A stretch of DNA of 62,236 bases from Diacronema lutheri. Taxonomy: Eukaryota; Haptophyta; Pavlovophyceae; Pavlovales; Pavlovaceae. A model generated the notes under the pieces. The model did no database searches. It was not told the origin of the DNA and worked only from the letters and a program-made list of their open reading frames with translations. The translations under genes and the position numbers were made by a program. The stretch's first letter is position 1, and each line of letters opens with the position of its first letter. Where the stretch lies: contig JAGTXO010000087.1 of the NCBI GenBank assembly GCA_019448385.1, positions 1 through 62,236 of the forward strand. The letters run 5' to 3'. Of the stretch, positions 291-28,766 are shown one piece after another.

Positions 291-617
291 CGGGCGCGCC
301 GCGGACCGCGCTGACGCGTGCGCGGGCCGCGCGGGCCCGTCGTGGTGGCCGGCGCCGGTGCGAGTGCAACGCGGCGCGCGCGTCGAGCAGCCCGAGGAGC
401 CGGATCGGGATCATGCGGCCGTCGGCGCGGCGCGCGGCTGCATCTCGCTTCGAGGCTGGCGGACGGTATTTTTTCCGCCGGTTGAGCGCTTCACTTTGGC
501 GTCAGCTCAAAAAACCGCTCGGGCGGGAACTCGGGCGCCCCTTTTCCCGGGGACCTTCCGGCTTCCGGGCGGATGGACGAAGTCCGTGAGGATCATGGAA
601 AATTCAAGTATAGATGG
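291..617. other. Intergenic, 3' flank of the Fanzor gene
   Basis: No convincing coding frame. The stretch lies directly downstream of the Fanzor-encoding gene, which reads towards it, and includes a short imperfect inverted repeat (GGTTGAGC near 480 against GCTCAAAAAACC near 505). Fanzor and TnpB guide RNAs usually arise from the 3' flank of their gene, so this is where one would look for a guide RNA. Nothing in the sequence alone proves one. Confidence 0.25.
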
Positions 618-3600
618 TCAAGCCAATCCGATCAGGGGCACGATCGCGCCCCGAGTGCAGCGCGGGCCGTTCGGAAGGACGTCCTTGTGAGGGAGCTCTT
701 CGCTTTGGCGAGCGGGGGAGCACGGACGCGCAGCGTTGCTGCGGCGGCGTGCGGGCGGCGAGCAGCGGTCGGGCTGCTCGCGACGAGGCCGGAGCAGACG
801 GCGCCGTGGCCGCCGGGCGCAGGTGACGCGCGCCGACGAGCCGTAGCGAGCGTCCTGTGATCCGACGGCGGTTGGAGCGGGCCGGCTGGTGCGGCGCGCT
901 CGGCCACGGGTGGCGGCGTGCACGGTCGTGCCGCGCGCGGCACGCGTCGCCAGCCGCGCGCGACCTGGGCAGAGCCCGCAAAGCGTCGACCGCTGCGCGG
1001 CTCGGCCGTGCGTCAACGCCGGCCGCGCTTCGGCCCGCGCGCGCTGCCGCCGCCGGCACTGGCGCTGGCAGCTCCGCGGGCGGGGGTGCGGGCGCGAGAG
1101 CCGCCGCCGCCACCGCCGCCGCGCCCGCCGCCGTCGTCGCCACCGCCGTCCGCCGCCGCCGCCTCCCCCGCCGTCATCGTCGTCGTCGCCGCCGCCGCCT
1201 CCGTCGCCGTCGCCGTCGCCGTCGCCCTCGCCGCCGCCGCCGTCGCCGCTGCCATCGTCGTCGTCGTCGTCGTCGCCCTCGTCGTCGCCCTCGTCGTCGC
1301 CGTCGCACTCGTCGTCGCAGTCGTCGCCCTCGCCGTGCACCATGCGCTCCTCACGCTCCCACACCTCGCCGCGCGCCCACCAGGCGAGCACGAGGGCAAA
1401 GCGCTCAGGCGTCGACGTGGTGTCGCGCCCGGCCGCGTGCGCCGCCATGTCGTGCACGTCGTAGAAGATGTTGCGCGCGGCGTTGTAGTCGCGGTGCACG
1501 GGCTTCTTGCCGCCGTTGCACGCCGGGCAGATGACGAGCGCGTGCACCGTGCGCGTGCCGCCCTTTGCCACGGGCAGGCGCGGGTTCTGCGCGAGCTCCG
1601 CGCCGCAGCGCTGCAGCCTGCCGCCCTTGGCGAGCCGCGGCATCGAGCAGTGCATCGACGTGTACGGCTCGGGCACGAAGACGGCCGCGACGCCGCGCCG
1701 CCGCAGCTCGCGCAGCAGCCCCACCTGGAAGGCGGGCGGCGCGCCCTTGGGCTGCGCGCCCTTGTGGTCGCGCAGCCACTTGCCCACGCACACGAGCAGC
1801 CGGTCGCGCGTCACGCCGTCGACACAGTGCGCCGCGATGAGCGCCTCGGCGACGCGCGCCGCGTTGGACCGCCCGCCGCTGTCGCGCCGCCAGCGCTCCT
1901 TCCGGCGCGCCGGCGCGTCGTACACGTGCTCGGCGGCGCGCTCGCGCACCCGCGCGCTCTCGCGGTGGAAGGCGATGTATTTGCCCGCGTCGAGCACCTT
2001 GGCGCTGTGCGCCTCGCCAAGCCGCGCCTCGTCCGCCTCCACGCTGAACTCCTCGCCGCGCCCGTCGGTGCGCACGCGCCGCCGCGCCGCGTTGGTCTTG
2101 GCCGTCTCGCGCGCAAAGCCCGCGGCGCGCGCGCGCGCGCGCTGCGTGAACTGCCGCCAGACGGCCGCCCGCCCGACGTGCGCAGAGTAGGTGGTGATGT
2201 TGCCCATGTTCGGGTCGGCCGCGACGACGACCGCCGCCTCGACGTCGATCGCCCGCCGCAGCTCGGAGCCGAGCGCGACGGCGATGCGCCCGTCCGGCCG
2301 GCGCCAGCGGTGCAGGACGCCCGAGCCGCCGGCCGGCGCCTGCGCCTTCGGCACGAGGACGGTCCCGACGGCGTGCACGGCGACGCCATCTGTCACCACC
2401 GACTTGACGGGCTGCCGGCCCGGGAGCGGCACGCGCGGCAGCGGCGCGAGGCCAACCCACGAGCGCCGCGCGTGCCACGGCAGATCGGCCGGCGGCCGCT
2501 CGCGCCCGGCGTAGTCGAAGACGCGGTTGGAGATGTCGAAGCGCGTCGCAAAGACCGCGTACCTGACGCGCACGTCCGACATCGGCGGGTGTGTTGCCGT
2601 TTGTGCCTGTCCACTTGATCGGCTCGCCATCGTGGTCGCGCAGGTCCAGCGCCTTGAGCCGCGCGCGCAGCTCCTTGCGCTCGTCATCCGAAAGCGTCAC
2701 CCAGATGGCGCTCGCGGCGAGGCGCACGTTGCGCGGCACCTGCGCGCAGCGCGCGGCGCGCGAGCGCGCGGGCGCGTGACCAACCTGGCCGCGGGGCGGC
2801 GCGCACGGCGGCGGCGCGCGCGCTTGGGCGCTCGGCGGCGGCAGCGGCAGCCACGCCTCGCGCGCACATTGTGCGTGCGCAGCGGCGCCACATTGTACCG
2901 CGGCGGCCGTCCGGTCAGCTGCGTGTGGATGTGCGCGAGCCGGCAGAGCAGCGCCTGCCCCTCGGCCACGTGCTGCAGGGTGCGGATCTGCACGAGGAAG
3001 TAGCGCGTCGTGTGCCGGTCGTAGTTCCACCTTTTCGTGGGCGTGCACTTGTAGTCGATCTTGTGGAGGACCATGTCGGGCAGGTGGCGGTCGAGCGCGG
3101 CGGGGCAGCCGACGCGCGCGCCCTCCACGTCGCCGCGCAGCAGCCGCTCGCACAGCTCGCGCACGCGCGCGTTTCGCTGCATCTCGGGCAGCGCGACGAG
3201 CGCCTCGTCGCGCTCGACTGCCGCGCGGACGACGTCGCGGAGCAGCCCGTTCACGACGCGCGATGGATGCATCAGGCACGCGGTGGACACCTGCGTCGCC
3301 TCCGCCTCGAGGATCTCCGTGAGGCCCACCGCGCAGACGGGCTGGACGCCCTCGGCCATCTCGCCGACGGCGCGCGCCGTCGCCGCCTTGGTCTGCGCGG
3401 CGGCTTGCTCGGCGGGCTTGCCTCGGGGCGCTGCACCGTACGTGCTCTCGTCCTTGTGCCAGCCGATGGCCGAGAAGATCGCACGGACGGTTCCCTTGTC
3501 CATCGTGGTCGACGTGTGCACGCTGGTCGACGGGCCGCCCGACGCCGCGCCGACGGCCTGCGCGCTCGCCACCGCAGCCTCGTCGCGCACCACCTTGTTG

Positions 3601-6600
3601 ATGACGCGGTACGCCTGTGTCGTGAGCCTGTGCACGGCCGCCGCGATGCGCCGCAGCTCCTTCCGCGCACCGGGCTGCGCCGTCACCGCCTGCGGCCCCG
3701 CGTTGAGCGTCGAGCGCTTGACCACGAAGCCCGGGAGCACGCTGACGCGCGTGCGCGCCGTCGCGCCGCCGGCGGCGCGCGCGCTCGGCGCAGCGGGCTC
3801 GTCCACGCGCGCGCGCTCGACGCCGCGCGCGCGGGGAACGCTCGGCGCGCGCGCGCCCGCGGCGTCGCGCGCGCTCGCGGCGGCACCCGCCGCGGCGCGC
3901 TTGCCCGCGGCGCCCGACTCGCCGTGCGCGCGAAGCGGCGCCGACGCCAATGCCGACGCCGCGCCCGCGCCGCCGCTGCCGCTGCCCGATACGCCCGCGC
4001 GCCGCTTCTGCTCGTCGCGCGTCTTGCGGAACTGGGCGACGAGGTCGCTGCTCACGTTGGCCTCAGGCTCCCACGTGTCGGCGCTCTCGTCGTAGCCCCG
4101 CCACCTGATCCGGAACTGGAACGTCACCTTCTTGCCCGCCTTGCGGCGCTCGTCGACGACCGCCTCGACCTCGTACGTGCGCGCCTCCTCGTCGACGCTC
4201 GCGCCCGCCGCGCTCGCGCCCGTGTCCGGCCACCCAGCGACCGTGCCGCCCAGCCTCTCGGCGGCCGCGCGCAGCTGCCGCTCGCGCTGGGCGGCCGCGG
4301 CGCCTCGCGCGACCAGCGCGGGCAGCATGCCCGCGCCGCCCGCGAGGCCGTGCGCGCCGACGCTGGCGGTCATCAGCGCGTCGAGGCACGCGAACGTTGC
4401 GAGCGCACGCGCGCCATCGTCGCCGCCGCGCGGCTGCGAGCGCACGACGGGCGATGGCCGCGGCTCCCCCTCGGCCGCGAGCAGCGGCCAGATCGCACTG
4501 GCCAGCGCGACGGCATGCGCGCCGACCGCGACGGCCACGTCCGCGTCGAGCGGCGCAAAGTCGTAGCGCACGAGCGCGGCCGGGCGCGAGTCGTCCGTCG
4601 GCCGGTCGGCGACGAGCAGCCCGACCGGGCGCGGCGGCTCGCCGGACGGCGCGGCGACGGGCACGCAGAGGAGCACGACGAGCAGGCGCGGCGTGCCGCC
4701 GAGCAGCGCGCGCGCGGCATCCGCCCCGTCGGCTCCGCCGCGCGCGGCCGCGGCGAGCAGCTCGGCCGCGCGCGTCGGGCCCAGCGCCGTGCGCGCGTCC
4801 TTGCGCGCGCGTGCGCGGGCCGTGTACGCGGCGCAGGCGTCGTCGAGCACCGCCGCGCTGGGCGCGGTGCCAGTCGTCGCCCACGCGCGCAGCGCGTCGC
4901 GCACCCGCGTGACGATCGCCTGGTCGACCGCCGCCTCGCCGGCAGCGTGCGCCGGCGCGCACGCCGGCGGTGCGGCGGCAGGCGCGAGCGCGGGCGCGCC
5001 GTCGGCGCCGTCAACGCCGACGGCGCCGTCGGCGCGCCGCCACGCGAGCTTCGCCTCGATCTGCTGCCGGACGGCGTGGCAGTGCCGGTCGATGCCGCGC
5101 GCGTCGTCGAGCGCGGCCAGCGCGTCCTCAGCGGCGGGACGGCCGCTCGCGTCCGCGACGGCCTGCAGGCAGAGCAGCGCGGCCGCACGCGCGTTGCACG
5201 CGCTCTGCGGCTCGGGCGCGAGCGCGAGCTCGAGCTCGAGCGGCGACGCGCCTCGCGCCGCGGCGATCGCGTCCATCAGCACGTCCAACCGCTGCACCAG
5301 CGCCCTGTGCGCGTCGCGCGGCGCGCCCGTCGACGGCGCGCGCGAGCGCGTCGCCAGGAGCCCGAGCGCGCGCGCCGGCGCGCCCGCCGGCGTGTGCAGC
5401 ACGAGCAGCGCCGCGCCCGCCAAGCTCGCGTTGCGCGTGACGAGCGCGAAGATGCGCGTCGCCTCGTGCGCGCCCACCGACGCCCAGATCGCAGCGCGAT
5501 CGGCGTCCGTCTGCGCGTCGCACAGGTCGCGCACGTCGTCCGGCGCGAGCAGCGCGCCGCCGCCGGCGGAGCGCGCGACGATCGCCCGCGCCTCCGCCAC
5601 GAAGACGGCCTGCGGCAGGTCGGCGTGGCGCGCGTCGACGATGGCGCGCGTCGCGTGCACGCCGAGCTCCACGCCGCGGTAGAAGGCGCGCGCGTTGGCC
5701 GCGCGCGCGTGCGCCGGCCGTCCGTCCGCGTTGCGCCTCGCGCGCGCCTGCTTGCTCGTGCGCGCGAGGCCGTCGCGTGGCGGTGGCGGCAGCGTGGCGA
5801 GGAAGCGCGCGGCGGGCGGCGGCGCGCGCACGCCGCGCTGCCGCCGTGCGATGGCCGCGAGCCGCCGGCCCGCCGCGCTGCCGCCCGCGCCGACGTGCTG
5901 CCGGCGGCCGAGCGCCGCCGGTGGCGGCGGCGGCGGCGGCGCGGCGGCGGGCGGCGGCGCGGCGGCGGGCGGCGGCGCGACGGCGGGCGGCGGCGCGGCG
6001 GCGGGCGGCGGCGCGGCGGCGGGCGGCAGCGGCGGCGGCGCGGCGGCGACGGCAGCACCAGTCGGCTTGTCCGCCCACGCACCCGAGACGCTGTCCCAGG
6101 CCTTGCCCGGTGGCGCGCGCCCACGCGGCCGCGGGTGGCGGGCTCGAGCGGCGGGGGGCGGGCGGCCGGCGCGCCAGTCGAAGACAGGTGCAACCGTGGC
6201 GGCAGGCGCCGAGTGCAGCGCGTCGGTCACAGAGCGCGTGGTGCGCGCGGCGACCGTGGCGCGCATGGCGGGCGGGCGGTGAGCAGCGCCCGCCGGCGCG
6301 CCGGCGGGCGCGGCAGCCGGCGCGCCGGCGGGCGCGGCCGCCTCGAGCCCGGCGGAGGCGCCGCGCTTGCGCTTGCGCGTGCCGCCGCGCGTGCGCCTGC
6401 GCGCGCGCCCGCCGCGCGCCCGTGCGGCCTGCGCGTCGCCAGCCGCGTCGCCGGCCGCGTCGCCGCGCCGCACGTAGACGATCGCGAACGCCTCCTCGCC
6501 GGTCCCGTCGACGCCGCCGCGCGCGCGGCGTAGGACCGACCGCCACTGCAGCCGCCGCGCGCGGCCGGGCTCGCACGCAAACCAGCGCCCACCGCGCCTG

Positions 6601-9600
6601 ACGACGGCCACAAAGTCGTCGTCGCGCCGCCCGCGCCGGCGCGTGCGCAGCAGCACGCACTGCACGTCGAGCCAGCCCTCGTGCCAGTCGGCCGTGCTGG
6701 GGGCGACGCGAATCGACTGCGGGAGCTCGACGCCAAAGCCGGCGAGGCGCACGATGTGCGCGACGATGACGCTCGAAATGGCGGGGGCGCTCGACGGGTC
6801 GTCCGCTGCAGCGAGCACCGCCTCGCCCCAGTGCTCACGCGTGACGCAATCCGCGTCCTCGACGTGCACGTGCGCCACGCTCGCGCCGAGCTGGTGCACC
6901 AACGCGCAGATGTCGGCGTCGACCGTCCTCTCCTCCTCGGCCGCCTCGGCCGTGCCGCGGGCGGCGGCGTCGCCCGCCGGCTGCCCGAGGTACGCGATCG
7001 CCCGCTCGACGGCCGCGCCCTCCGCACGCGCTGCGCTGTCGATCGCCGCATTGCCGACGGGCGCGCGCAGCGCCGCGATCGCGTCTTGCAACGCCGTCGC
7101 GTCGCCCGTCGCCGCCGCCGCCGTCACCGCCGCCGCGCTCGCGGTGCCGTGCGCGACGGCGTGCAGCGCGGCGGCGCGCGCGGCGGGGATGCGCCCGTCC
7201 AGCGCGAGCACGAGCGGCGGCCCGGCCGGCGTCTGCTGCCGCCGGTGCCGCCGGCTCGCAGCCGGGTGGTCGGCGCGCGCGCGCTCGAGCCGCGCGCGCC
7301 GCTCGACGACGCGCGCCCAGAAGGCCTGCACCCTCGGCTGCGCGAATGCAAGCCAGCCGGCGCCGCGCGTCACGACGTGCACGACGATCCGGTCCTCGTG
7401 CCTGAGGTACTGCACGTAGAGCGCTTTGCTCACGCCGAGGACGTGCATGCCGAGCTGCAGCTGATCGCGGTGCGGCTGCGGCGGCCCGTCCTCGTGCGCC
7501 GTGGCGCCCGCCTTGGTGAGCGTCTTCACCTCGACGAGGACCTGCTCGTTGTTTTCGGGGAGGATGGCGAGCCCGTCCGGCGAGAAGGCGAACGGCGCGC
7601 TCTTGTCGTGCGGGTCCGCACGCACCATCGGCAGGTTGCACACGACGGTGATGCCGTACGCGGCCGCCAGCTTGCGCAGCGCGACGGCCTCGCCGAGGAT
7701 GCCCGCGGTCGTCGCCTTGGTCCGCACCTCGCGCCGCCGCCGGTGCACGTACTCGTCGGTGAGCGTCTCGTGCGCGACGCCGGCGTTGTCGTTCACGACG
7801 TCGCCAACCTTGCTGCCCGTGACCTCCTCCCATCGCTCGTCGTGCCAGCGCGGGCTGCGCTGCGCGGGCGCGCCCGCGCCGACGGCGTCGAGCACGCGGC
7901 GCAGCGCTGTGCCGTCGGGCGCAGCAGGCACGCGCGCGCGGTCCTGGGCCTCGCGAGCGTCGAGGACGCAGCCCGTAGTGGAATGTTGGGGTAGGTCGAG
8001 CTTGCTCGCCTCGCCGTAGCGGCTCTCCAGCTGGCGCGGTGCGTCGGCAGGGCCGCCGTCCGTGCGCGCACCCGACGCGCCCGCCAGTGCACGGGGCGCA
8101 GCGTCCGAGGCGCCCGCCGCGCCCGCGCCGCCGCCAATCGCGCCAGCGCACGCGCGCGCCGCGACCTGCGGACGGCCAGCCGCAGGGACCTCGTCCGCTC
8201 GGCCGGCCGCTGCGTCGGCCGTCCGCTTGGCCACCTCGCGCACGTCTCCGAGCGCGAGCGTGGCTGGCGCCGTCCAGCTCCCGTTGCGTTTGTCCCAAAA
8301 TTTGAGCAGCCCGCCAAGGAAGGGCGTGCCCGTCGGGCGGTCCTCGGGCACCTCCGCCAGGATCGCGTCGACGCGCAGCGCGGCCGCCACATCGCAGAAC
8401 GCGCGCGCGGCGCGCGCCATCCGCTCGGCGCGCGCGCCGCCGTCGTCCGCCGCGCGGCGGATGGCGTGGCTCACGTGCGCGACGCGGAGCGAGACGACGG
8501 CGTGCGCCGGCGCGTCGGCGCCCGTGCCGAGCGTGTGCCGCCGGATGGCCAGCTGCCCATCGCCCATGCGCGGCGGCAGCGACGCGCACGCCGCGACGGT
8601 CGTCGTGCCGGCCGCGCTGTCGCACAGCCAGCTCGCCTCGCCGCCGCCCGCAAACTCAAAGGTCGCGAAGCCCTCGCGGCCGAAAAGCGCGACGAAGTGG
8701 TCGAGCACCGCCTTGTTGATCGCGCGCGCCGCCGGCCGCGTCGATGCGCCGCGGGCAGCGCCACCCGCCGCGCCGCGCGCATCGCTGCACGTCGCAGGGC
8801 AGGTGCAGCCGGACGCGCGCACGCCGTCCGACCGCGTCCGCGGCAGCTCGAGCTCGCGCACCTTGGGGCAGAACCAGAGCGGGTTGGACGCCTCGAGGCA
8901 CAGCACGACGAGCCGCCCGTCCGTGCCGGCCAGCGCGCGCGCGTCGCGCAGCAGCTCGACGGCGAGCTCGGACGTCGCCGCGTGCACCGCCGGCTCGCCC
9001 GTCGCGCGGTCGGGCGGGAAGAGGCCGCCGCCGACGAGCGGGCTGGGGCAGCGGCCGAGCATCACGAGCAGCGGCGGCGGCGGCGTCTGCGGCGCCTGCT
9101 GCCCGACCGCAGCCGCCGTCAGCCCGGCCAGGTCGGAGCTCGTGCGGAGGGCCTTGAGCGCGACGCGCGAGCCGGTGCCCGCCTGCTCGGAAAACGTGGC
9201 GAGCATGGCGCACGTGCTCGCCCTCGCGCCGCACTGCCAGCTGACGCGCGCGAGGAGGCCTTCCAGCGTGTCGTTTTCGCGCGGCCGCGTGACCGCGTCG
9301 AGCGCCGCCGGGCCGAGCTGGAGGCTGCCGGGCGTGACGCACAGCACCGCCTCGTGGTAGGCGCGCAGCAGCTCCCTCGGCAGCTGCTCGGCGGGCGTCG
9401 CCGCCTGCTCGCCCACCCACCGTACACCGTGGCCGCCGTCGCCCGCGCCCGCGAGCCGGACCGCCGGCCCGCCCGTGATCGCCGAGGTCGGTGGCGTGCC
9501 GAGCGCGTCGACGAGCGCGCGCACGGGCGCGACACGCCTGCGCGCAGCGTCCGCGCCGACGGCGAGCGCGGCGATCTGAGCGCCCTCCCATGCGCGCTCC

Positions 9601-11556
9601 CTCGCGTCGTCCCGCGCGGCCGCCGGCGCGGCGCCCGGCCGCGCGCCGGGCGGCACCGCGCACGCCGCCGCGACGACCTCCGCGCGCGCGCCGGCGGCGT
9701 CGGGCGCGTGCAGCTGCGCGAGCGCGCCAAAGAGCGCGGCGGCCGAGCGGTAGCGGCCGTGCGCCGCGACGAGCGCGTAGAGCACGCGCAGCGCGGCCAC
9801 GCCCGCCTGGTCGGGCGCGTCGCCAGCGATGCGCCCGACCTCCCACGTGCGCGTGGGCGGCGGGCTGCCGTCGGCCGGGTCCGGACGCAGCGCCCACGCG
9901 CGCTCGACGATCGCGTTGAACACGTCGCGCGCGGCGCCCTCGTCAAACTCGGCGGCGCCCGCCGCGTGCGCGCACCACCCGTGCACGCGCGACGTGGGCG
10001 CATCCACGGCGCGCTGCACGACGAGCACCGCCGGCCGGTCGACGCAGCCGAGGCTCACCGCCGCGTGCTTGCCCTCGAGCAGCGCCGCCGCCGCAGCCTC
10101 GACCAAGGCGTCACCAGGCGCGTCGCCGACGACGACGGCACAGCCGTCGCCGTACTCGGCCTGCATCGCGGCGACGCACGACGCGACAAAGTCGCCGCCC
10201 GCGGCCGCCGCGTGTCGCGCCGCCAGCATCCGGCGCGCGATGGCAAGCCAGACGTACTCGGCCGGCGCGCGCGCGGCGCGCGCGCGAGGCGCGCCGGCCG
10301 CGCCGCGTGCGCCAGCGCGTGCGCCTCCAGCGGCCGCAACGGCCGAGGCGGCTGGAGCGGCGGTGAGCGTGCGCCGCGCGCGCTTCGCCGGCCGCGCGAT
10401 GGGCGATGCACCCGCCGTCGCACCGCCCGCAGCAGCCGGTGCGGCCGCCACAGCGCCCGCCGCGACGCCACTCGTCACGACGCCCGTGGCGGGCGGCGCG
10501 GCGTCGGACGCGGCCGCCTCGACGGGCGTCGCGCAACTACCGCCAGCGGTCGCGGACGCGCCCGGCGACGCGTCGGCGAGGAGGTGGCGCAGCACGCCGC
10601 GCGCGAGCGCGACTCGCACGGCGAGCGTCAGCGCGCGCAGGCGGTCGGAAGGCGAGGCGTCGCGCTCGGCGTCGGCGGACGTGGCGGCAGCAGGCGGGGC
10701 GGCGGGCGGCGCGGCGGCGGACTGGGCGGCCGCCGGCGCAACCTCGTCGGCCTTGGCCAGCCAGACGAGCCCGGCGACTGCGAGCACGACGCTGTACGCG
10801 CCGACATCGTCACCCGCAACGCGCGCCAGCCGGGCGTGGGCGTCGGCCTCGGACACGGCGACGCGGAAGAGCACGTCGTCGCGGGCAGCTTGCTCGGCAA
10901 ACTGACGCAGCTGCTTGGCCATCGTCACGCCGGCGACGCACGCCTCGCCCGCCTCTGCCTCGACCTGCTCGTCCTGGCCGATGGCGGACGCGCCGGCCTC
11001 GGCGCCACCGTCGAGTGTCCGGCGGCGCTCGAGGGCAAAGCCACGCACACAGACGCTCTGGAGGCCGCCGAGCGCGCCCGCCTTCTCGTGCAGCGCGCAC
11101 GACAGCTCGACCACCGAGTCCACGCGCGTCGCGGCGGCGCCCCCCCGCTCGCCGCGCGTGGGCGCGCGCACGACGAACACCGTGAATTGCGCGCGCTTCG
11201 CCGCGCGCGCCGACGCGCACGCGTGCTTCAGGAGCCGGCAAAGCGCGGGCCTTTGCGCCGCTGCGCCCCGCGTGCACAGCAGCAGTTGGCCGCGCTCGTC
11301 GCCCAGCTCCTGCTCGACGGCGGCCTCGAGCGCGTCGTCCGTCAAATCGCCGTGCTCCGTCGAGGCGAGCGCGCGCGCAGCCGCGAGCGCCAGCTCGCCT
11401 GCGCCCGCGCGCCGCCGGCGGCGCGCACCGGCGGGCGCGTGCGGCGCCGACGCGTATGACGACGCCGCCGCGTCCGCGCGCGCACACGCGGCGCGCAACG
11501 CCTCACGCGCCGAGGCGGCCGCGCGCGCCCTGGGCGCGAGCCTCAAGAACGTGCGC

Positions 11557-11643
<87 letters not shown>

Positions 11644-14600
11644 TCGCCCGCGTCGCCGGCCGGCGGCGGCGGTGGCGGCGGTGACGGCGCGGCCACGGCG
11701 GCGGCAGCAGCGGCGGCGGCGGCGGTGGCGGCGGCGGCGGCGCCCAGCGCGGGCGGCGGCGGCGTGGCGGCGGCGGTGGCGGCGGCGGTGACGCCAGCGG
11801 CGGCCTTGGCGACGCGCGTCTGCGGCGGCGCTTCGGCGCGATCGGGGCTGCCCCCGCCACGCACCGCGCTCGTGCCCGCGCAGACGCCGCCCGGCGCACG
11901 ATCGCTGGCCGCGCCGGTCAGCGCGACGCGGAGGCGCTCGCCGACAGCGTACATGTCCGCCACGCTGAACGTGCGCGGCGCGGACGAGCAGCCCGCCGCG
12001 GCGAGCGCGTCGTTGAGCGCGCCCACTATCGCGAGGCCGCACGTCGCGCCACGCTGCGCCGCCTCGTCGAGCAGCCGCGCGCGGCGCACGCGCGAAATGT
12101 CGAGACCCGCCGCGTGCAGCGTGGCAGTTATCGCCGTGGCGAGCACGAGCGCCCGCCTGCAGGGCGACGCGAGCGTGTCGACGAGCACCGCGTCGTAGCG
12201 ACGCTCGCCCGCGCGCGCGACGCGCACAAGGCGCAACGCGGTGAAATGGCCGGAGGCGAGCTGCGCGCCGTCGTCACCGCCCGCGCCGCCGCGCTCGTCC
12301 GACGGGCTCCACACGCCGATGACAGCCTGCGTCGTCGCCTCGCTGCGCAGGCGGTGCAGCAGCGCGGCGCGCTCGGCGCCGTCCTGGAACACCGCGGGTT
12401 GCGCGGCGAGCGGCACGTGGCAGACATGCCCGCCGCCGGCCTGCCCGTGCACGCGTAGCACGACCTCGCAGCACGCGTCGACGGTTGAGGCGAGCATGTC
12501 GCCGCTGGCGATGCGCTCCACCTCTGCCTGCGGGAGGCCGGCGCTCGCGGCGGCGGAGGCCAGCCGGCGCGCAGCCGCGTCGCCCGCCCACGCAAGCAGC
12601 GCCGAGTTGGCGGGTTGGAGGGGAAGCTCAAGGGCGGCTGGTTCGGTGGCGGTAGCCTCGTTGGCAACGGGCACGTTGGCGGTGCGCACGTTGGCGGCGG
12701 GCGCGGCGGCGATGGCTGGTGGGGCGGAGGACACGCCCGCGGCGGCAGGCGCGGACGCGACAGCGGCAGCGGCTAGCGGGGCGGGGAAAACGCCGTCGGT
12801 GGCTGGCGCGGAGGCGAGTGCAGGAGCAACTAGTGGGGCGGGAAAATCGGCGGCAGGCGCGAAGGCGGATGCAGCAGCGGCTAGTGCGGCGGGGAAAACA
12901 CCGTCGGCGGCAGGCGCGAAGGCGGATGCAGGAGCGCCCAGCGGGGCGCAGAAAACACCGTCGGCGGCAGGCGCGAAGGCGACAGCAGCAGTGGCCAGTG
13001 GAGCGGAGGCGCAGGGCCACGCGCGCGCCAGCCGTGCAAGCCCAAGCCGCGCGCGAGCGACGCACGCGCCGATGGCCGAGGCGGCGGCGCAGGCCACGAC
13101 GTGGCCTGGCACCGGTGTGGCCAGCCGCTCGCGGGTGTGCACGTCGAGCCGCGCCCCACGCCAAGAGCGGCGGCGCGCTGAACGGAGGCGCGCGACCCCG
13201 ATCGATCCGCCCGCGCACGCGCGCGCCGGCTCAGTGTGGCCAACGCGCGCCGCTATGCAAGGCGCGCGCGCGATAACGGCGGCTGTCGGCCGTGGCGTGC
13301 GCGTGGCGGCGCCGCGGCGACGGGCGCGGCACACGAGCCGCTCGGGCGCGCCGCCGCCGCGCGGCACGATGTCGAGCAGCACGGTCACGCCGCGCGCGCG
13401 CGCGACCGCCGTGCACGCGAGCCGCACGGGCAGCGGCGGCCCGTCCGGGCGCGCGAGCGCCGCCACCTCGGCGTCGGTGAGGCTGTGCAGCTCGCGGCGC
13501 GCGCGCGCGAACGCGGCGATGTCCGCGCGCAGCTCCGCGTCCGTGCCGAGCGCGGCACGCGCGTGCACGGGGAGCGACGCGCGCAGCGCGTGGAGCACGC
13601 CGCCGCGCGCGCCGCGCGGCGCCGGCGCGCGCTCGCGCTCAGCGCGCGCGGCGCGCGTGAGCTCGCGCACCGCGCGCGCGAGATTGCGCCGCGCGGCCGC
13701 GACGGGAGGGCTAGGTGCGCGCGCGCGCCGGTTGTAGCGCGGCCGCGCCGAGTCGAGGGGCGGCGGACGCGGTGCGTACGCCGCGGCGCGGCCCGCGCGC
13801 CAAAAGGCCGGCGGCGGGCGCAGCTCCGTCGCGTCGACCGCGGCCGCGAGCGCGCCGAGCGCGGCGTCGCTGTCGCCCGCCGCGTCGGCCGCGTCGACGA
13901 GCACGAAGAGCGCGCCGAGCGCGCGCGACGCGGCCGCCTGCGCGGCGGTGGGGCGGGCGCAGGCAGCGACGCATGCGGCCGCCATGCCGCGCGCCGCGGC
14001 GAACGCCGGTGACGTGACGGCCGCGCCGATGGCAACGGCGGCGGCGGCGACGGTCGAGGCGGCAGCGCCGGCGATGGAGGTGGCAGCGGCGGCGGCGCTT
14101 GCCATCGCGCGGCGCGCGAGACGCGAGGCGCCACCGACCGCCGCCGCCGCAGCGCGCGCTGCGCGCGCGCCGGTGGCGCGCATCGTCGCCGCGCCAGGCG
14201 CCGCCGCGCCGACGCCGCCGGCGCCCGCGCCGTCGCCGCTCTCGGCCGTGCAGGGCTCCGATGGCGAACCCGGCGTGCGCTGGCGCGTGATGCGCGCGCC
14301 GAGGCGCGCGCTCCGCGCCGCGCGGCCGGCGACGTCGAGGAAGCGCCGTGCGCGCGCCGCGCGCAGGCCACGCGCGCGCGGCGGCGCACCGACAGGCGCC
14401 GAGCGCCGCGGCGCGCACGCCGGCGCGTCGCTGTCGGGTTGCGCAGCGCGCGCGCGGGAACTCGGCGCGGCGTGTGCGGGCGGCGGGCGCGCGCCCGCGC
14501 GGCGCAGAGGCGCGAGGCGCCGGCCGCAGACGAGGCGTGTGCGCAACCAGGACGGCGAGGGCCGCAGGGCGCCGTCGACGTCGCGCATCGGCGGGCCGCG

Positions 14601-17600
14601 AGCCCGCCGCGCAGCCGTGCGGCGCGCGCGAGGCGCTCGGCGGCGCGCGCGCCGCACGGCGCGCGCGGCGGCGCGCACGCCAGCGACGGCTGCGGCCACG
14701 CCGCGCGCCAACACGGCCGCGGCGTGCGCCATCGCACCGAGCACGGCGCGTGGCGCGCCGAGCAAGCGCAGCAAGCGCGACGCCGTCGCGCGCGCCGGCG
14801 CACCGTGTGCAGGGGCCTCGCCAGCGCCAGCACCGACGCCGCCATCGCCGCAGCCGCAGGTGGCGTCGCCGCCGCCGCAGGCGTCGCGACGGACGCCGCC
14901 GCCGCCGAAACAATCGCCGCACACGTCGCCGCCGACGTTGCCACCCCAGCCGCCGTTGCGTGCGCAGGTGGCTGCGGCGCGTGCGTGCGGGAGGCGTGCC
15001 GTGCGGCGCGCATCACACGGGCTGCGCGACGCGAGCGACGCCGCCGGGGTCCCCGCTGCGCCAGGCGCGCCGTGCGCGCCAGCCTCGCCGGCCTCGCCGG
15101 CGCGCGGTCGCGCGCTCGCCTCGACGTGGCCGCCTCCGCCGCCATCGCCGCCGTCGAACCGGGCGGCGGAGGGCTGCCGCTCGAACCGCTCGTCGGCGTC
15201 GGCCGCCACCGCCGCCTCGCGCTCCGCCGCCGCGGCGGCCGCACGGCGCGCGTGGCGGAGCGCGCGGCCGCCGTCCGCTGCGCGGCGTGGCGGCGCGGGC
15301 GCCGCCTTCGGCGCGCGCGGCCCCTCGGCGCGCTCGCGGAGCACGGCGAGCGGCGTGCCCGTGGCGACGCTCGTGCAGACGCGCCGCAAGGCGGCGCTTA
15401 CGCACGCGTGGACGACGCGCGCCGTCCGCTTGTCGGCGGCGCGCGCGGCGCGGCGCGCGGCCTTGGCGGCGGCCTTTTTGGCGCGCCTCCGCTCCGCCTG
15501 CTCCGACAGCGCGCGCGCCTGGCGCTCGGCTGCGAGCGCGTCCTCGGGCGAAACGGTCGGCCTCGGCGGCCGCGCGCGCGCGCTGCGACGCTGCGCGCTG
15601 CGGCGGTCGGACGGCGGCTGCCGCGGCGGCGAGGACGGCGGGCGCGAGCTCGGCGTGGGCGACCAATCGCCGCTGACGGTTGCGAGCGGCGCAAACGGGT
15701 TGTCGTCCCCGCGCCCCGCGGCGTGCGACAGTGCACGCGGCGTCGGGCGCCGGCCGACCGCTGGCGGGCCCCACTCGGACGGCGGCTCCGAGGGCGAGCG
15801 CGCCGTCGGCGCCGCGCGTTGCGCGGCCGGCGGCGCCTCCCGGTCCAGCGCCGCCTGCTCTCTCGCCGCGGCCTGCTCGTCACCCTCCGGCACGCCACGC
15901 GGCGCGAGCACCGCGGTGGCGCAGCGCGTCGCGTTGAGCAACGCCGCCTCCATCTGCCGCACGCTGGCCTTGGCGCACGCCACACCCTGTCTCGCCCGGC
16001 GCAGCGCCTCGTGCGCGCGGCGCACTTCCGCGTCGGCATCTTCGCGCATGCCAAAGTGCGCCTGTTGCAGCCGCAGGTCCGCAGGGCGCCCCTGCGCGCG
16101 AGGGGCACGGGCGCGGCGGCGCGCAGGTGACGGAGCTGGCGCGCCGTTCTGCGCTGCGCGCACGCCAATCGACGGGCGCGCGCGCGGCGGGGCGCGCGCG
16201 CGCGCGCGCGCGCGCGCTGCCTACCCAGCCGCCGGCCGGCTCGCGCGAGCGCGCCAGCTGCTCCGCCGCCTCGGCGTCGAGCACGCGCTGCTGCGCCTCC
16301 TCCTCGCCCAGTGCAGCGAGGTGCAGCCGGCGGGCTGCCTTGCGGCAGTTGCCCTCCGCCTTGCCCACGGCCTTGCGCGCCGCGTCGACGGGGTCGTCGT
16401 TGGCTCTGGCGCGCCTGCGCTTGCCCTTGTCGGCGGGCGGCGGCTCGGCGCGCTGCAGCGTGCCGAGCGCGTCGTCGGCTCCGCGCGCGGCCGCCCGCGG
16501 GCGGCGGGCCCCAAAAAGCGCACCGGTCGCCGTGCGCGCCGCGCAAGCAACGACCAGCGCTGACATGCCGGCGAAGACCGCACCGCCCAGCGCCACGGTT
16601 GCCACGATGCGCAGCGTCCCGTGCGCAAGCTGCGCTGCCTCCGCCGCTTTGGCGGCCTCGCGCGCGCGCGCATCGGCGGCTCTCATCTCGTGCAGCAGCC
16701 CGGCCGCGCCGCTCGCGCCGTCGCGGCCGCGCGCGAGCTCGCACAGCACCGCCGCCGCGCGCCGCGTGGGCTCGCGCGCGAGCAGCTGCGCGCCGCCGTC
16801 GGGGCGCAGCTTCTCAACGAACTCGACAAACGTCGCGTCGCGCCAGAGGGACATGCGGAAGGCCCTGTGCACCGCCCCCTCCTGCTCGCGCATCCGCCGT
16901 GCCGCCCGCCTGCCGTCGCGCGCGTGCGCGTGCGCGGCCGCGTCGACTCCCGCGACGCCGCGCTGCGCGTCGCGCGCGGCCGACGACGGCGCCGCCGCGC
17001 TGCCCGCCAAGGGCGCCGCAGCGGCGACGCGCGCGTGCGGAGCGACGGGATCGCCGGCGGCCGGCGGCTCGGCGCGCTGCGGCGTGCCGTTTGCTCCGCG
17101 CGCGGCCGTCCCGGGGGAGGTGGCCGCGATGGCGCCGCCAGCCGCGCCGCGCGCCAGCCACGCGCATAGGCTGCCGACGAGCTCGCCGAGACCCCCGACG
17201 GTCGCCGCGGCGGCGAGTGCGCCGGGCTTGCCGGCCGACAGCGGCTCGCGAGCGTCGTCGTCGCAGCCGCCGGCACCCGTCTTGGCGAGTGCGTCGCGCT
17301 CGCCCTCGACGCCCGCCACGACCGCCGCCCCTCCGTCGTCCGCCGCGCCGGCCGCGCGCGCGGCCGGGCGCAGAGGAGGCGTGCCGGTGCAGCCGTCGCC
17401 GCTCGTCTTCGCCGTTTCCTCCACTTTGGTCACTTCGTCGCCACCTGCGCCATCTCCGACGCCGGGGCCCTTGGTCACGCTTGCCGCCATGCGCGCCGTG
17501 CCCGCCGGCCAGCCCGCCGACTGCTCGAGCGCGGCGGCGAGCGGCGCGACGCGCGTCGACTCGGGCGCGCTCTCGTCATCGGGCTCGAGCGCGTTGTGCA

Positions 17601-19899: not shown

Positions 19900-21801
19900 C
19901 TGCAGACTGTGGGCACGTCAGTGTCCGGATGGCGGCCCGGATGATACTTGGGAGAATTTACATGATGCCCTGGAGAATGCCCCGCTCTCCCACAACCAGG
20001 ACCCGCCAGCGCGCCGAGCCTACTCGTTTGCCCGCGCCGCCTCTCTTTGCGCGCCCGAGCGCGGCCTCCGAGCGCGGCCAACGTCCTCCGGGGGCGTGCA
20101 TCGTGGCTGCTCGGAGGGGCTGCGACGCGGCGAAAGCTCGCTGCGCGGCCGCAACGTGAGCGCGCGCGCGCGGCCGCGCGCCGGCCTGCGCTGCTCTGCA
20201 CGGCCGCGCGCCGGCCTGCGCAGCCTCGTCGCGCAGCGTGAGCGCGAGCGCGCGCGAGGTGAGCTCGGCGGATGGGTGCGCGGCGGCGTTGGCGGCGGGT
20301 GCGGCGGCAGGCTGGGCGGCGGGTTTGGACGGAGAGTGTCGGGGAAGAACGGGGCGCATCCTGGCTGGGAGTTGGACGGCGCCCACCACGCGCTGGCGGA
20401 TCCTGGTTGCCACCACCACCCCCCCCCCCCCCCGGAGACGAGGACCAGGGGCATGGCCGACTCGCTGCGCCGCACAGCGCGCGGCGCGCGGCATGCTGCG
20501 CGACCTCAAGCACATCCAGCCGCGCTCCGCCCACGCAACGCGCGCAATGCCGCGTTGCACTGCAGGTGTGCACGTGCGGCTCTCACGCGCACTGTGTTGC
20601 ACGAACGGCATCACGCCACCGAGCTGCGTCCGGACCACGCGCCGCGCGCAGGCGACCACACAGGGGCGCGCCGCGCGGCGCGTGCGCGCCCTCGCAACCG
20701 TTGCAGCACGCTCTGCCTTGCACTGCGCCGAGCCGCCGCGCGCTGTGCGCGTGCATGCAGGGCGCACGCGTGCGACGAAGCGCGCGCGCGGCGAGGCGCG
20801 CGGGCGGCTCGCTGCGCGGGCGGCAACGCGCCCAGCTGCGCCCAGGCCAGGCGCGCGCCCGCGAGTGCCACCGGGACGCACTGCCCCCGCCGGGGTCGCC
20901 GCGCGCTCTGTGTGTGCGCTCGCGCGCTGCGAGCGCGGCGGAACGTTCGTGCATGGCGCGAAGAGCGCGGCACCCGAAGACGGCTGCCCCGAGCCCGCGC
21001 CGGGTGGCAGCGAGCGGCGGCACCTCCTCGGCGAGCCCGCCCCGCGCCTTCCCCTCCACGTGGCGTTTTGAGGCAGACGGACACGCGCCCACACTGCGAC
21101 TGGGCACGCTGCTCGAGGCAGACACGCACCCAACGCGCGCGCACCACGCGCCCGCGTCGGCGGGCCGGTGTGAACGAGCGAGAGCTCGGTGTCGCCAACG
21201 GGGGCACGGGCGCGACTTCGGTCCGCCTCTCGACGGACGCAGGCGACGCTGCCGGGAACTTCCCCGACGCCTGCACATCCAGGGCTTCGAGGTACAGAGC
21301 TGGGCAACAGTGCCGCTCGTCACCGATGAGGCGGCCAAGCTCGCTATCCTTGCTGCCCTCGGCTCCACCAAACAGCCGGGCGACCCAACGGTTCGTGATC
21401 GCCTGGCCGCCAGGTGCGAACCGCGCCCGTGCAAGCGCTTCACCCGCATTCTCCGCCCCGCTGCGGACGTCCGCCTGCCGGCCGCGAACACGGCCGGTGC
21501 GCGTTGCCGCCTGGCCCAACACGAAAACCCGCCCGCCCCCGAGGCCGCAGGTCCTACCTGCCCAAGCGCAGCCCAACGGCACGCAGACAGCCCGCCTTGG
21601 CAACCGACTCGTGCGCGAGCGCTCCGCCCTCCACAAGAGCCTGCCCCACGCCACCGCCGACGCGGAGCCAGCGCAGCCGACGCCCCTCCGCGACGCTCGC
21701 GCCGCAAGGCGCAAGGGCCCCGGCGAGACGGCGTCAACCAAGCCCGCCGCTGGCACAGCGCCGGCACCCGGAGCCCACCCCAAGCCCCCGCGCACGCCTC
21801 G

Positions 21802-21832
<31 letters not shown>

Positions 21833-22234
21833 ATCGGCGGACCGATTGCGTTTTGGTGCGCCAGGCTCAATGCGCCATCGCAGTGGCGGGCCCGCAGACG
21901 CAGACGCTGACATGCCCAACGCTGGGCACTGAGGCCGCAGGCCGGCCCTCCTGGACCTGGCGGGCGAGCTGCCCGCGCAGCGGCCACGCGAGCCTCGCAC
22001 TGACCGTGGCGGTCGCTGCCACCGTGATAGCTGCGGGTGCGGCGGCCTTGGCCCCAACCCCATCATCCGTCTTCATCCCCGCCCTGCTCGCGCTCGCGGC
22101 CTACGTCGGCAATCCCTGCACCGGGATCCGCCCCGCGAAGTCCACACAAGACTTATCCGTGCTGCACGCCAGCCGCGCGCGCCGACGCGCGCCGCTCCCA
22201 CACGCTCACCTCCGTTTCCGCGGGCGGCCCAACG

Positions 22235-22272
<38 letters not shown>

Positions 22273-22629
22273 CCCCCCCCCCCCCCCCCCCGGCAGGCGG
22301 CCATCGAGCCGCATTAGCACACCCGCCCGGGGCCTCCCGCCGCACCCGCAGCGGCTCGGCGCCTTGAATCCTCCCGTCCCCCGGGGTGAGGCCTTCAACC
22401 CGGGCCCAGCGCGCTCCGACTGCCTCACGCGCGCCAGCGCCAACCTCGGCGGCATGGTAGACCCCGAGCGAAAAGCCGCACTTCTCGCCGTCCTCGTCAG
22501 GCGCAAGTACGTTATCCTGCTCCTACTGCCGACGCGGCTCCCGCGCGCGCGGACTACTACGCCGGGCAGATCGCCGCAGACGCACGTGAGTGCACACGTG
22601 CGGACAAGGCGCACACGCTCGACGTCCAG
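19900..22629 (+). other. Unresolved region, perhaps an intron-rich plus-strand membrane gene
   Basis: No single gene model can be supported. Plus-strand C tracts (about 20429-20445, 21802-21831, 22235-22269 and 22271-22291) resemble the poly-C pyrimidine tracts of plus-strand introns in the IPMS gene. Between them are protein-like plus-strand pieces: WATVPLVTDEAAKLAILAA (about 21300), two hydrophobic stretches (LALTVAVAATVIAAGAAAL and SVFIPALLALAAYV, about 21990-22110) and NLGGMVDPERKAALLAVLVR (about 22440). This fits a multi-exon membrane protein, but a minus-strand reading of 21250-21450 is also possible. The first 100 bp may hold the promoter of the giant gene. Confidence 0.25.
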
Positions 22630-22836
22630 TTAGCGCACGTGCACGTGCGCGCCACTGGTCACATTTGAGCGTCCGTGCTCGCCCACAGCGTCGCCATCCA
22701 CAAGATGCGCGCTGGAGCCATCCAAGCAGGGCTCTGCCTGCTCGGCTTCCGCAAGGCAATTTGGGCCGCGGACAGCGGACAGCGGACGGCGTGCGCGTGC
22801 GAGGTGCGAAAGGAGGAAGAAGGTAGGGAGAGTTGT

Positions 22837-22883
<47 letters not shown>

Positions 22884-24307
22884 CGGCCGCCGGAGACGAG
22901 GACGCACTCACCGCTGTTGGCAATGCGCGCGTCACGGAGACAACTTGGCGGGCCTCGCACGCAGCTGGGCCGATCGCCGCCGTAGAGATGTCTGCAGCCG
23001 TCTCCGCGATGCCGATCGTCGCATCTGTTGGCACCGCTGCCATCTGCCGCACCCGCGGCCAGGCTGCCGGCAAGGTCGGCGCGTCGGGCTCCGAGCTCGG
23101 CCACGCAGGCGATGCGGCCGACGGCGGTGACGCTGAGCCCAGCGCCGGGTCCAACGGCTCCACGTCGAGCCGGCTGTGAACGAGCATGCTCGCACCACTT
23201 GCCCACGCCAGCGCGTCGGACTCAGGCACGTTGTAGATCTGCGCGGGCAACGCGCGTGCGTGCGGCAGGCGCGCGCGCGAGCTTTCAGGCCACGCGCGCG
23301 TGCCGCGCGGGAGGACGGGGCGGTCGCGGCTGCGCTCGACCGCCGGTCGCGGCACCGAGCGACCGTGCGCGCCGCCGCACGTTGTAGTCGTCGCACGGAA
23401 ACCAAGCCTCGTTGCGGAGCACGATGGCGACAAGGTGCCCGCTCATCGGCCCCTCGCCCACGTGCACCACGCCGGCGACGGGGAGGTGGTCGCGCCCGCC
23501 GAGCAGCAGCCGCGGCGCGCACACGAGCGCGCGGTTGTTCTTGCACTGCGAGCCATTGCCGCGCGTCGTGCGCGGCGCCTCGACAGCAATGCTGGCTGGC
23601 GTGAGCACGCCCGAGTGGCCCGCGTTCGTGTGGCGATCCCGCGGCGGCCCAGCGGCGCCCCCCAGAGCGTGTGCAAGCGCGCGCGCCGCATCGCCGCCGA
23701 CGCTGACGAGTACGGCGATGCCCTCGCCGGCCTCTGAAGGCACGGCGATCTGCTCGAGCACTGGCCCGACGCGTGTGTCGGCTTCAAAGGCCGCAGCGAG
23801 CCCGGGCACTCGGCCGAGCAGCAACCGGAAGAACTCAGCGGCATCCTGCGGCGTCCTTCGCGCGCCACGGCCCGAGATGACGTCGATGACGGACACAAGA
23901 CACAGCCGTGTCGGCGCCCTGGTGTCCTCGATCAGCGTGCCAAAGTCCCGAAAACGCGCCCTCTCGACGCTGTTGGCACGGCGCGAAGCGGAGCGAAGCA
24001 TCGCACGGAGCATGTTCAGGGCGAAGAGCGATTGCATAAGGACGGTCGTGTAGCACGCGCTGCCCTCGTTTTTCGCGCCTGCGCCGCGCCGCGCAGCGCC
24101 GGGTGTGCGGGGTGCGCACGCACGGTTTGCGGCGGGATGGAGAGAGGCTGGCTGGGCGCGCGCCGAGCCCGGCAAGCCGTGCAGGCGCTCACCACGCGGC
24201 ACGCCGGGCACTCTCACCGGCCACATCGGGCCGTCAAACGCGTCTTCCACAGGCTGCCGACCGACGACGTAAAACTTGCTCAAGGCGCCGCGCCGTGCAC
24301 GCGCCAT
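22630..24307 (-). CDS. Ubiquitin-specific-protease-like (C19) cysteine protease
   Basis: Proposed exons on minus: 24307-24124, 24078-23381, 23238-22912, and a last short exon ending at 22630 or 22659. Introns: 24079-24123 (45 bp, GTGCGT), 23239-23380 (GTGCGG...GCGCAG) and one from 22911 (GTGAGT) that contains a 28-base G/C run. Joined, the catalytic signatures of USPs are in order: Cys box KNEGSACYTTVLMQSLF, QDA-type box TPQDAAEFFRLLL, His box GPMSGHLVAIVLRNEAWF with Asp in PCDDYN, and the closing strand ASMLVHSR of the domain after the splice. About 420 residues, close to a bare USP catalytic core. It lies between the Fanzor polyprotein and the Pif1 cluster; whether it is a host gene or element cargo is unknown. 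Confidence 0.65.
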
Positions 24308-28684: not shown

Positions 28685-28766
28685 GGCGCGCACGACGTCG
28701 CCCAGCCAGAGCAGCCCGGGGCGGGGCGAGTCCGGCTGCGCGGAGGTCCGGCTCGAGCGGGCGGGC

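What the first reader, a model, noticed from the sequence alone, without database searches (positions are those of the whole stretch)
1323..4190. Chromodomain joined to a Fanzor RNA-guided nuclease
A chromodomain with all three methyl-lysine cage residues (Tyr3997, Trp4021, Tyr4024) is followed, with no stop codon, by a Fanzor whose RuvC residues (Asp158, Glu340, Asp400 in local numbering) are intact. If it is one polypeptide, an RNA-guided nuclease is tethered to a histone-mark reader. This would couple guide-directed cutting to chromatin context, by analogy with chromoviral integrases. I am not aware of such a fusion being described.
Basis: partly seen in the sequence, partly recalled or inferred. 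Interest (0 to 1): 0.95.

Follow-up and report, generated by a model that had tools for sequence, protein, structure and literature searches.

The report
Chromodomain–Fanzor fusion in giant transposon
In an alga's genome, a 31-kilobase mobile element present in over a hundred near-identical copies carries one gene that appears to join a histone-reading module to an RNA-guided DNA cutter, a pairing that could let a jumping element read chromatin when it chooses where to cut.

Summary
The window is contig 94 of a 43.5-Mb, 103-contig genome whose statistics match the haptophyte Diacronema (Pavlova) lutheri. The chromodomain is real (Pfam E 1e-12, all three cage aromatics). The Fanzor-like nuclease is real (TNB domain above cut-off, D-E-D triad, TDG motif). 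They are not in one uninterrupted frame. A giant open frame holds chromodomain, linker and Fanzor N-half; the RuvC half lies in another frame behind a predicted 128-nt GT–AG intron. A further frame break near 2590 is absent from 31 of 31 compared copies and is probably error at a contig end. The other copies read chromodomain–linker–FanzorN / intron / FanzorC. Codon signal is continuous across the junction, no in-frame ATG lies between the domains, and part of the N-half aligns with another Fanzor family. The gene is the 3' end of a 31-kb element (607–31651) with CTATA-bounded ends (199 5' and 196 3' termini genome-wide), encoding also a PIF1 helicase, a RecE-like nuclease and a ubiquitin hydrolase-like domain; no transposase was recognised. 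Gene-level fusion is well supported. One uncleaved polypeptide, histone binding and RNA-guided cutting are untested; selection is not shown. I found no such fusion in the papers searched or in another species.

The parts
607..31651 (-). Mobile element, 31.0 kb; 5' end at 31651 (CTATATA-C/G-GGCGCGG), 3' end at 607 (GGCTTGACCATCTATAC)
   Evidence: 38 of 40 scored copies start matching at 594-607; the other two are the window and contig 93, which shares the flank; 24 other copies stop matching at 31646-31657; junctions; 199 5' and 196 3' termini genome-wide, 0 for the patterns read backwards; 56 end pairs on contigs 1-45
2697..16220 (-). Giant open frame (4507 aa stop to stop) holding RecE/YqaJ-like nuclease, chromodomain, linker and Fanzor N-half
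   Evidence: GC3 0.91; 102 of 146 element-type chromodomain frames open for 4000 aa or more
4023..4175 (-). Chromodomain with complete aromatic cage
3741..4022 (-). Low-complexity linker, coding in the same frame, no ATG
   Evidence: codon log-odds 0.36-0.46 in frame 0 in the four windows centred on it; 0 Met in the 173 aa from chromodomain end to the next Met
2868..3740 (-). Fanzor N-terminal half (exon 1)
   Evidence: local profile alignment to a second Fanzor family of this genome covers residues 193-720 of the spliced protein, E 2.6e-15; exon 1 ends at about residue 291. Residues 1-192 are aligned only in a forced global alignment.
2740..2867 (-). Predicted intron, 128 nt, GT...GCAG, phase 0
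   Evidence: codon signal changes frame here; 2-nt length variants lie in it in L021, L030 and L083. An 83-nt alternative with another acceptor also stays open.
1013..2739 (-). Fanzor C-terminal half (exon 2: wedge end, RuvC, TNB), broken in this copy by one-base differences
2214..2216 (-). RuvC Asp (AADPN)
   Evidence: coordinates, alignment to DPG of the second family
1668..1670 (-). RuvC Glu (PEPYTS)
1488..1490 (-). RuvC Asp (HRDYNAAR)
1467..1706 (-). TNB domain match PF07282
608..1012 (-). Non-coding 3' end between Fanzor stop and element end; candidate omega/right-end RNA region (by position only)
   Evidence: Position; fold z-score -1.07, not significant; no Rfam match in window 1-32500
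7296..7871 (-). RecE/YqaJ/lambda-exonuclease-like nuclease domain
   Evidence: phrog_434 E 1.8e-16; TIGR03033 E 2.2e-6, below its cut-off; PF09588 E 0.0022, below its cut-off
23813..24079 (-). Ubiquitin carboxyl-terminal hydrolase-like domain (partial)
   Evidence: PF00443, E 4.3e-8, above its cut-off
26182..27275 (-). PIF1-like helicase in two open frames (27039-27275; 26632-27078; 2B domain 26182-26313)
   Evidence: E 1.9e-15; E 1.8e-24; Pif1_2B E 6.2e-13

Best explanation
This is the 3' end of a giant DNA-type mobile element, recently amplified in a haptophyte genome. Its last gene encodes, after one splice, a (poly)protein ending in chromodomain - flexible linker - Fanzor. SHOWN by sequence: both domains; one continuous coding frame from chromodomain into the Fanzor N-half; element boundaries; high copy number. 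INFERRED: the 128-nt intron is spliced; the chromodomain binds a methylated histone tail and tethers the nuclease (and perhaps the whole element-encoded complex) to chromatin carrying that mark; the Fanzor is guided by an RNA read from the element's 3' end into the flank, recognises the CTATA insertion motif as its target-adjacent motif, and cuts element-free sites so that repair copies the element back. The chromodomain would play the part it is thought to play in chromovirus integrases: choosing or holding a chromatin environment.
For: Chromodomain and cage. Fanzor identity: TNB above cut-off; TDG motif (VTDG), which PMC10711439 gives as the Fanzor1 wedge motif (passage seen); D-E-D aligned to a second Fanzor family of the same genome, E 2.6e-15, an alignment that takes in about 99 residues of exon 1. 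One gene: codon-usage log-odds positive in the chromodomain frame through linker and Fanzor N-half, then changing frame at the predicted intron (trained on a non-overlapping part of the same giant frame); 0 in-frame Met in the 173 residues after the chromodomain; exon-2 residues before its first ATG are conserved in P0002 (48% identity) and P0004 (39%), so they are probably translated, which in this family asks for an upstream exon or a non-ATG start; frame-breaking 2-nt variants in the intron of L021, L030, L083. Recurrence: 90 of 148 listed TNB hits (90 of the 114 that score 31.3-31.5 bits) have a listed chromodomain on the same strand at a constant distance upstream (start to start 2468-2563 nt, two groups by strand). 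More diverged copies L077 (97%) and L075 (94%) keep the order (chromodomain of L077 also by Pfam). Specificity: the stretches scanned of two other Fanzor lineages (L079 with L002; L071) have no chromodomain. Mobility: precise ends and discrete lengths near 31.0, 29.2, 26.3 and 21.5 kb.
Against: No transcript or protein evidence. No clear purifying selection between subfamilies: 47 replacement to 20 silent changes in L081 versus L031 over 4.4 kb, about what neutrality gives; every chromodomain change seen was a replacement (2, 3, 1, 1 and 4 in L081, L082, L083, L077, L075), none in the cage. L082 has a frame-breaking 2-nt insertion in exon 2, L042 a one-base loss there and L075 two stops. 44 of 146 listed chromodomain frames are shorter than 4000 aa. 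No homologue with both domains elsewhere; P0002 begins with M just at the start of exon 2, so a separate start in that species is not excluded. The nuclease has DPN where Fanzors have DPG. NCBIfam's TnpB model matches P0001 only at E 0.023, far below its cut-off. No significant RNA fold at the 3' end. The model of the Fanzor C-half was of no use (mean pLDDT 41).
Confidence: 0.55

Rival explanations
1. Polyprotein reading: chromodomain and Fanzor are translated together but separated by proteolysis (the element also encodes a ubiquitin-hydrolase-like domain and, by eye, protease-like segments), so the nuclease that acts is not tethered.
For: The frame is over 4500 aa long and multidomain; a UCH-like domain is in the element; the linker is low-complexity, as cleavage regions often are (recall).
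Against: No cleavage site known; no protease family matched in the pieces of the giant frame that were scanned. The protease-like motifs there are my reading by eye.
Confidence: 0.25
2. Two genes: the chromodomain ends an upstream gene and the Fanzor is a separate downstream gene with its own start.
For: Giant gene models are often wrong; the three homologues found begin at or within four residues of the start of exon 2 (P0001, P0002, P0004), P0002 with M.
Against: No stop, no ATG and no loss of codon signal between them; part of the Fanzor N-half is in the chromodomain frame; the database proteins may start there because frame callers do not splice (inference).
Confidence: 0.12
3. Dead cargo: the fusion is a by-product of element growth, without function, carried by the transposition of the rest.
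For: Near-neutral change between subfamilies; frame-breaking differences in some copies (L042, L075, L082); a deletion copy without chromodomain and Fanzor N-half, L072.
Against: 102 of 146 listed chromodomain frames stay open for 4000 aa or more; indels between L031 and L081 are net in frame; the catalytic residues are kept in P0002 at 48% identity. Recent amplification alone could also explain open frames.
Confidence: 0.2

Closest known systems
Fanzor1 proteins in eukaryotic transposons (Bao and Jurka 2013, PMC3627910; Saito et al. 2023, PMC10432273; PMC10711439; passages seen)
   Same: TNB/RuvC nuclease with TDG motif, carried at one end of a mobile element, next to the element's end where the guide RNA is expected
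   Different: The passages name Mariner, hAT, Crypton, Helitron, Sola2, MuDr and viral carriers and 400-700 aa proteins; here the Fanzor is the end of a multi-thousand-residue frame, preceded by a chromodomain, in an element without recognised transposase; DPN instead of DPG
Chromodomains in LTR-retrotransposon polyproteins (chromoviruses; PMC6338049, passage seen)
   Same: A mobile-element enzyme with a chromodomain in the same polyprotein
   Different: There a DDE integrase of a retrotransposon with the chromodomain at its C-terminus (position recalled); here an RNA-guided RuvC nuclease of a DNA-type element with the chromodomain on its N-terminal side
Helitrons / Helentrons (PMC6431247, passages seen)
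   Same: A helicase of PIF1 type (type recalled for Helitrons), no terminal inverted repeats, no clear target-site duplication, large size, extra protease domains
   Different: No Rep/HUH domain found (one match in the whole genome, on contig 63); ends are not TC...CTRR (end motif recalled)
Cryptons (short terminal direct repeats, PMC3627910 passage)
   Same: Short direct repeats at both ends (CTATA), no inverted repeats
   Different: No tyrosine recombinase found in the window's element

Membership tests
Fanzor (Fanzor1) | TNB / zinc-ribbon domain | tested here: met
   PF07282 28.7 bits vs cut-off 26.3. Cysteine spacing atypical (one CxxC plus two separate Cys). The homologue P0002 is below the cut-off (11.4 bits).
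Fanzor (Fanzor1) | RuvC D-E-D triad | tested here: met
   Asp161, Glu343, Asp403, aligned to the second family's triad
Fanzor (Fanzor1) | Repositioned glutamate (E-alt) before the zinc finger, none at the canonical place | tested here: inconclusive
   Glu in PEPYTSMHCS; canonical place reads CVGKW; the exact positions of E-alt and E-can are recalled, the paper's figure was not seen
Fanzor (Fanzor1) | DPG signature at the first Asp | tested here: not met
   DPN in this family, DTG in P0002, DPG in P0004 and in the second family. So I call it Fanzor1-related rather than a canonical member.
Fanzor (Fanzor1) | TDG motif in the wedge domain | tested here: met
   VTDG here and in P0004, TDG in the second family, SDG in P0002
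Fanzor (Fanzor1) | Guide RNA from the element's end | tested here: inconclusive
   About 405 non-coding nt between stop and element end; fold z -1.07, no Rfam match
Fanzor (Fanzor1) | RNA-guided cleavage | not testable with these tools
   Needs biochemistry
Chromodomain | Profile match over the whole domain | tested here: met
   PF00385 positions 1-52 of 53
Chromodomain | Three-aromatic methyl-lysine cage | tested here: met
   Tyr, Trp, Tyr aligned to HP1 1kna and CDYL 2dnt; that these are the cage residues is recalled
Chromodomain | Methyl-histone binding | not testable with these tools
   Needs peptide binding; the structure job was not accepted
Helitron | Rep (HUH) domain | tested here: not met
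   (E up to 1): 1 match genome-wide, not in the window
Helitron | PIF1-like helicase | tested here: met
Crypton | Tyrosine recombinase | tested here: not met
   (E up to 1): 16 matches genome-wide, none in the window. I did not map all 16 against the copies; one (C69:95472) lies about 20 kb upstream of a chromodomain hit on the same strand and may be inside a copy, but an element gene should match in over a hundred places.
Crypton | Short terminal direct repeats, no TIR | tested here: met

The most novel reading that the evidence does not exclude
A chromatin-aimed, RNA-guided 'cut-and-copy' mega-element: a chromodomain holds the nuclease at marked nucleosomes, the Fanzor cuts CTATA sites, and the element's own RecE-like exonuclease and PIF1 helicase process the break and drive copying of 21-32 kb of DNA, so that no conventional transposase is needed.
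Probability: 0.1. Interest if true: 0.95.

Novelty: new variant of a known kind. Interest (0 to 1): 0.78.

Why it matters
The biological role of Fanzors is called unknown in PMC10432273 (discussion passage seen). A natural fusion to a histone-mark reader, in a recently amplified element with over a hundred copies in a culturable alga that has RNA-seq (PMC8379373), would be a direct clue that RNA-guided cutting is tied to chromatin, and would make it testable: where do new copies land, and does the chromodomain matter? It is also a natural template for chromatin-directed genome editors. The element, giant and without a recognised transposase, is of interest by itself.

Tried and rejected
Rejected: 'no stop codon between the domains' as written. 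Rejected: the frame break near 2590 as programmed frameshift or pseudogene mark. It is absent from 31 of 31 compared copies, and eight one-base length differences to L083 lie between 626 and 2590 (seven of the eight were checked against that one copy only). In window 2591-5789, 26 of the 30 copies L021-L050 show no length difference to the window; L021 and L030 have two extra bases in the intron, L022 and L048 have one-base differences of their own. The flank 1-606 is 97% like contig 93, so the contig end itself may be chimeric. Set aside for lack of a domain: Helitron, Crypton.

Led nowhere: structure of the Fanzor C-half (pLDDT 41, so no fold search was made). PDB sequence searches: the window's frame gave no nuclease, the P0001/P0002 profile gave Cas12f1 at E 0.087, the second Fanzor family gave Spizellomyces Fanzor at E 0.51. 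Viral contig scans with the Fanzor, the PIF1 frame and the RecE frame found no relative. RNA fold; Rfam. A database search for chromodomain plus Fanzor N-half gave only a retrotransposon chromodomain (E 9.4e-4). L073 (86%) was too decayed to test the intron. Eleven of 17 stretches fetched at the expected 5' end held no element 25-mer, probably because many copies are shorter.
Full report
WHERE IT IS. The window is contig 94, bases 1-62236, of a genome of 43,492,796 bases in 103 contigs. Published figures for Diacronema (Pavlova) lutheri NIVA-4/92 are 43,502,671 bp, 103 contigs, longest contig 3.042 Mb, half-size contig 852.26 kb and 73.25% GC (PMC8379373, passages seen); contig 9 here has 3,042,068 bases and contig 11 has 852,258. 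The match is by statistics, not by name; the totals differ by about 10 kb.

THE OBSERVATION. On the minus strand a frame open from 16220 to 2697 (4507 aa, GC3 0.91) holds a chromodomain at 4175-4023 (Pfam E 1.2e-12). Its three cage aromatics line up with HP1 and CDYL. The TNB/RuvC part of a Fanzor-like nuclease is in a different frame (618-2696; PF07282 E 1.5e-6), and a stretch between them in a third frame.

WHY THE FRAMES DISAGREE. (a) The second frame change, near 2590, is absent from all 30 fetched copies L021-L050 and from L083. Against L083 the window shows eight one-base length differences between 626 and 2590. This is the end of a contig and most likely error. (b) The first change is shared by the copies and fits a 128-nt intron, GT...GCAG, phase 0. 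Splicing it gives an unbroken frame which in L083 ends in the same C-part as database protein P0001. Support: the codon signal changes frame there; copies L021, L030 and L083 carry two extra bases inside it while their TNB frames stay open (633 aa); exon-2 residues upstream of its first ATG are conserved in P0002 and P0004, homologues at 48% and 39% identity. Caution: P0002 begins with M at this very point, and an 83-nt alternative intron would also keep the frame open. The copy L073, at 86%, keeps the bases at both splice sites but is too decayed to decide.

IS THE FANZOR N-HALF REALLY IN THE CHROMODOMAIN FRAME? A profile of the spliced protein (L031, L077, L075, P0002) was compared with a profile of chromodomain-free Fanzors of the same genome (L002, L016, L019, L071). 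The local alignment covers residues 193-720, probability 98.5, E 2.6e-15, crossing the exon junction at about residue 291. Residues 1-192 are covered only in a forced global alignment. Codon log-odds, trained on a non-overlapping part of the giant frame, are 0.36-0.69 in the chromodomain frame in every window that ends before the intron, and negative in the other two; in the windows running into the intron they fall to 0.32 and 0.08 and then the other frame leads. No in-frame Met lies in the 173 residues after the chromodomain.

RECURRENCE AND CONTROLS. A TNB search of the genome listed 148 matches (150 of 306 candidates scored), a chromodomain search 150 (150 of 260 scored). Of the 148 TNB hits, 90 have a listed chromodomain upstream on the same strand, start to start 2468-2563 nt, in two groups by strand; all 90 are among the 114 hits that score 31.3-31.5 bits. 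The other 24 of these 114, and all 34 with other scores, have none listed, in part because both lists are capped: L077 and L075, among the 34, do have one. Four of the 150 chromodomain hits look like other genes; of the other 146, which I count as element copies by score, 90 are confirmed by pairing and 102 have frames of 4000 aa or more. Of eight more diverged TNB loci fetched, L077 and L075 keep chromodomain and Fanzor N-half together; L072 is a deletion without chromodomain, Fanzor N-half and parts of the C-half; L073 and L078 align only in the Fanzor part; L071, L074 and L076 belong, by their translations, to another Fanzor family. The scanned N-terminal extensions of the two other Fanzor lineages show no Pfam domain besides TNB; about 98 residues further upstream of L071 were read but not scanned.

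SELECTION. Against my reading: between L031 and L081 I count 20 silent and 47 replacement changes over upstream part, chromodomain, linker and both Fanzor parts; with L077 and L075 the ratios by part range, where defined, from 0.42 to 2.49 on very small numbers. All chromodomain changes seen are replacements, none in the cage. L081's indels are net in frame; L082 has in addition a frame-breaking 2-nt insertion in exon 2. This does not show constraint; the copies are too young or too relaxed.

THE ELEMENT. On the 3' side 38 of 40 scored copies begin to match at window 594-607; the other two are the window and contig 93, which shares the flank at 97%. On the 5' side 24 other copies stop at about 31651. 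Junctions: 5' host-CTATATA-C/G-GGCGCGG in 8 of the 10 ends found (variants GTATATA in L107 and TATTAA in L070); 3' GGCTTGACCATCTATAC-host in 20 of 20 of the second sample, the next base T 14, G 5, C 1, and in 9 of 10 of the first (the tenth, TATAA, is at a contig end). I see no inverted repeats or target duplication beyond CTATA. Exact-pattern counts are 199 for the 5' end and 196 for the 3' end, 0 for the patterns read backwards. On contigs 1-45, 56 ends pair up, of 98 and 90, leaving 42 5' and 34 3' ends alone; 24 pairs span 30.5-31.8 kb, and others cluster near 29.2, 26.3 and 21.5 kb. Several contigs begin or end at element ends, as expected where an assembler stops at repeats. The element also encodes a PIF1-like helicase, a RecE-like nuclease and a ubiquitin-hydrolase-like domain. 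Neither a Helitron Rep nor a tyrosine recombinase was found in the window's copy. Two further protease-like segments and an ssDNA-binding-like segment before the helicase are my reading by eye, from no call.

HOW IT MAY WORK. The Fanzor gene is last in the element, its stop about 400 nt from the element's end, where known Fanzors and TnpBs read their guide RNA into the flank (PMC10711439, passages seen). The invariant CTATA(C) would be part of RNA scaffold or target-adjacent motif. A chromodomain on this nuclease would hold it, or the whole polyprotein, on nucleosomes with a given mark. I commit to this at 0.55 for the whole, and about 0.85 for gene-level fusion alone. The main rival is cleavage of the polyprotein.

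LITERATURE. Searches in the held library for Fanzor with chromodomain (3 papers, one then seen in passages, two in the listing only), Fanzor/TnpB/eukaryot/domain fusion, at least three of the four (40 of 55 listed), Fanzor with haptophyte (one paper, listing only) and Fanzor with transpos and chromatin (15 of 32 listed) showed no title, abstract or passage describing such a fusion. A search on giant transposons in algae was seen as a listing, one paper then in passages. PMC3627910, PMC10711439 and PMC10432273 were seen in passages, not in full. The library holds no preprint server and few subscription journals.

Noticed in passing
window 48564-52612: A second, partial or related copy of the element's 5' part (PIF1 region and 5' end, 93-99% identical) in the same orientation, ending in the same terminus at 52612.
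   Followed up: partly
window 28781-29652: An 872-nt stretch near the element's 5' end that matches its own reverse complement at about 90%; the same holds for the 24 other copies listed.
   Followed up: no
L002, L012, L016, L019, L071, L079: Further multi-copy Fanzor lineages in the same genome (13 TNB hits at 43.9 bits and others near, frames up to 1779 aa), with long low-complexity N-terminal extensions and no chromodomain in the stretches scanned.
   Followed up: partly
window 1-2590: Contig end with eight one-base length differences to copy L083 and a 3' flank 97% identical to that of contig 93: probably low-quality or chimeric assembly.
   Followed up: partly
window 31756-38868: An open frame with an Urb2/Npa2 domain near its end stops about 100 bp beyond the element's 5' end.
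   Followed up: no
window 53120-56548: Open frame with RCC1 repeats, spanning a 320-nt tandem array of 6.4 copies and a 12-nt array of 57 copies.
   Followed up: no
L056 and L118: Two element copies (contigs 39 and 45) share the same 5' host flank but have different 3' flanks; contigs 93 and 94 share a 3' flank. Assembly duplication at contig ends or element-mediated exchange.
   Followed up: no
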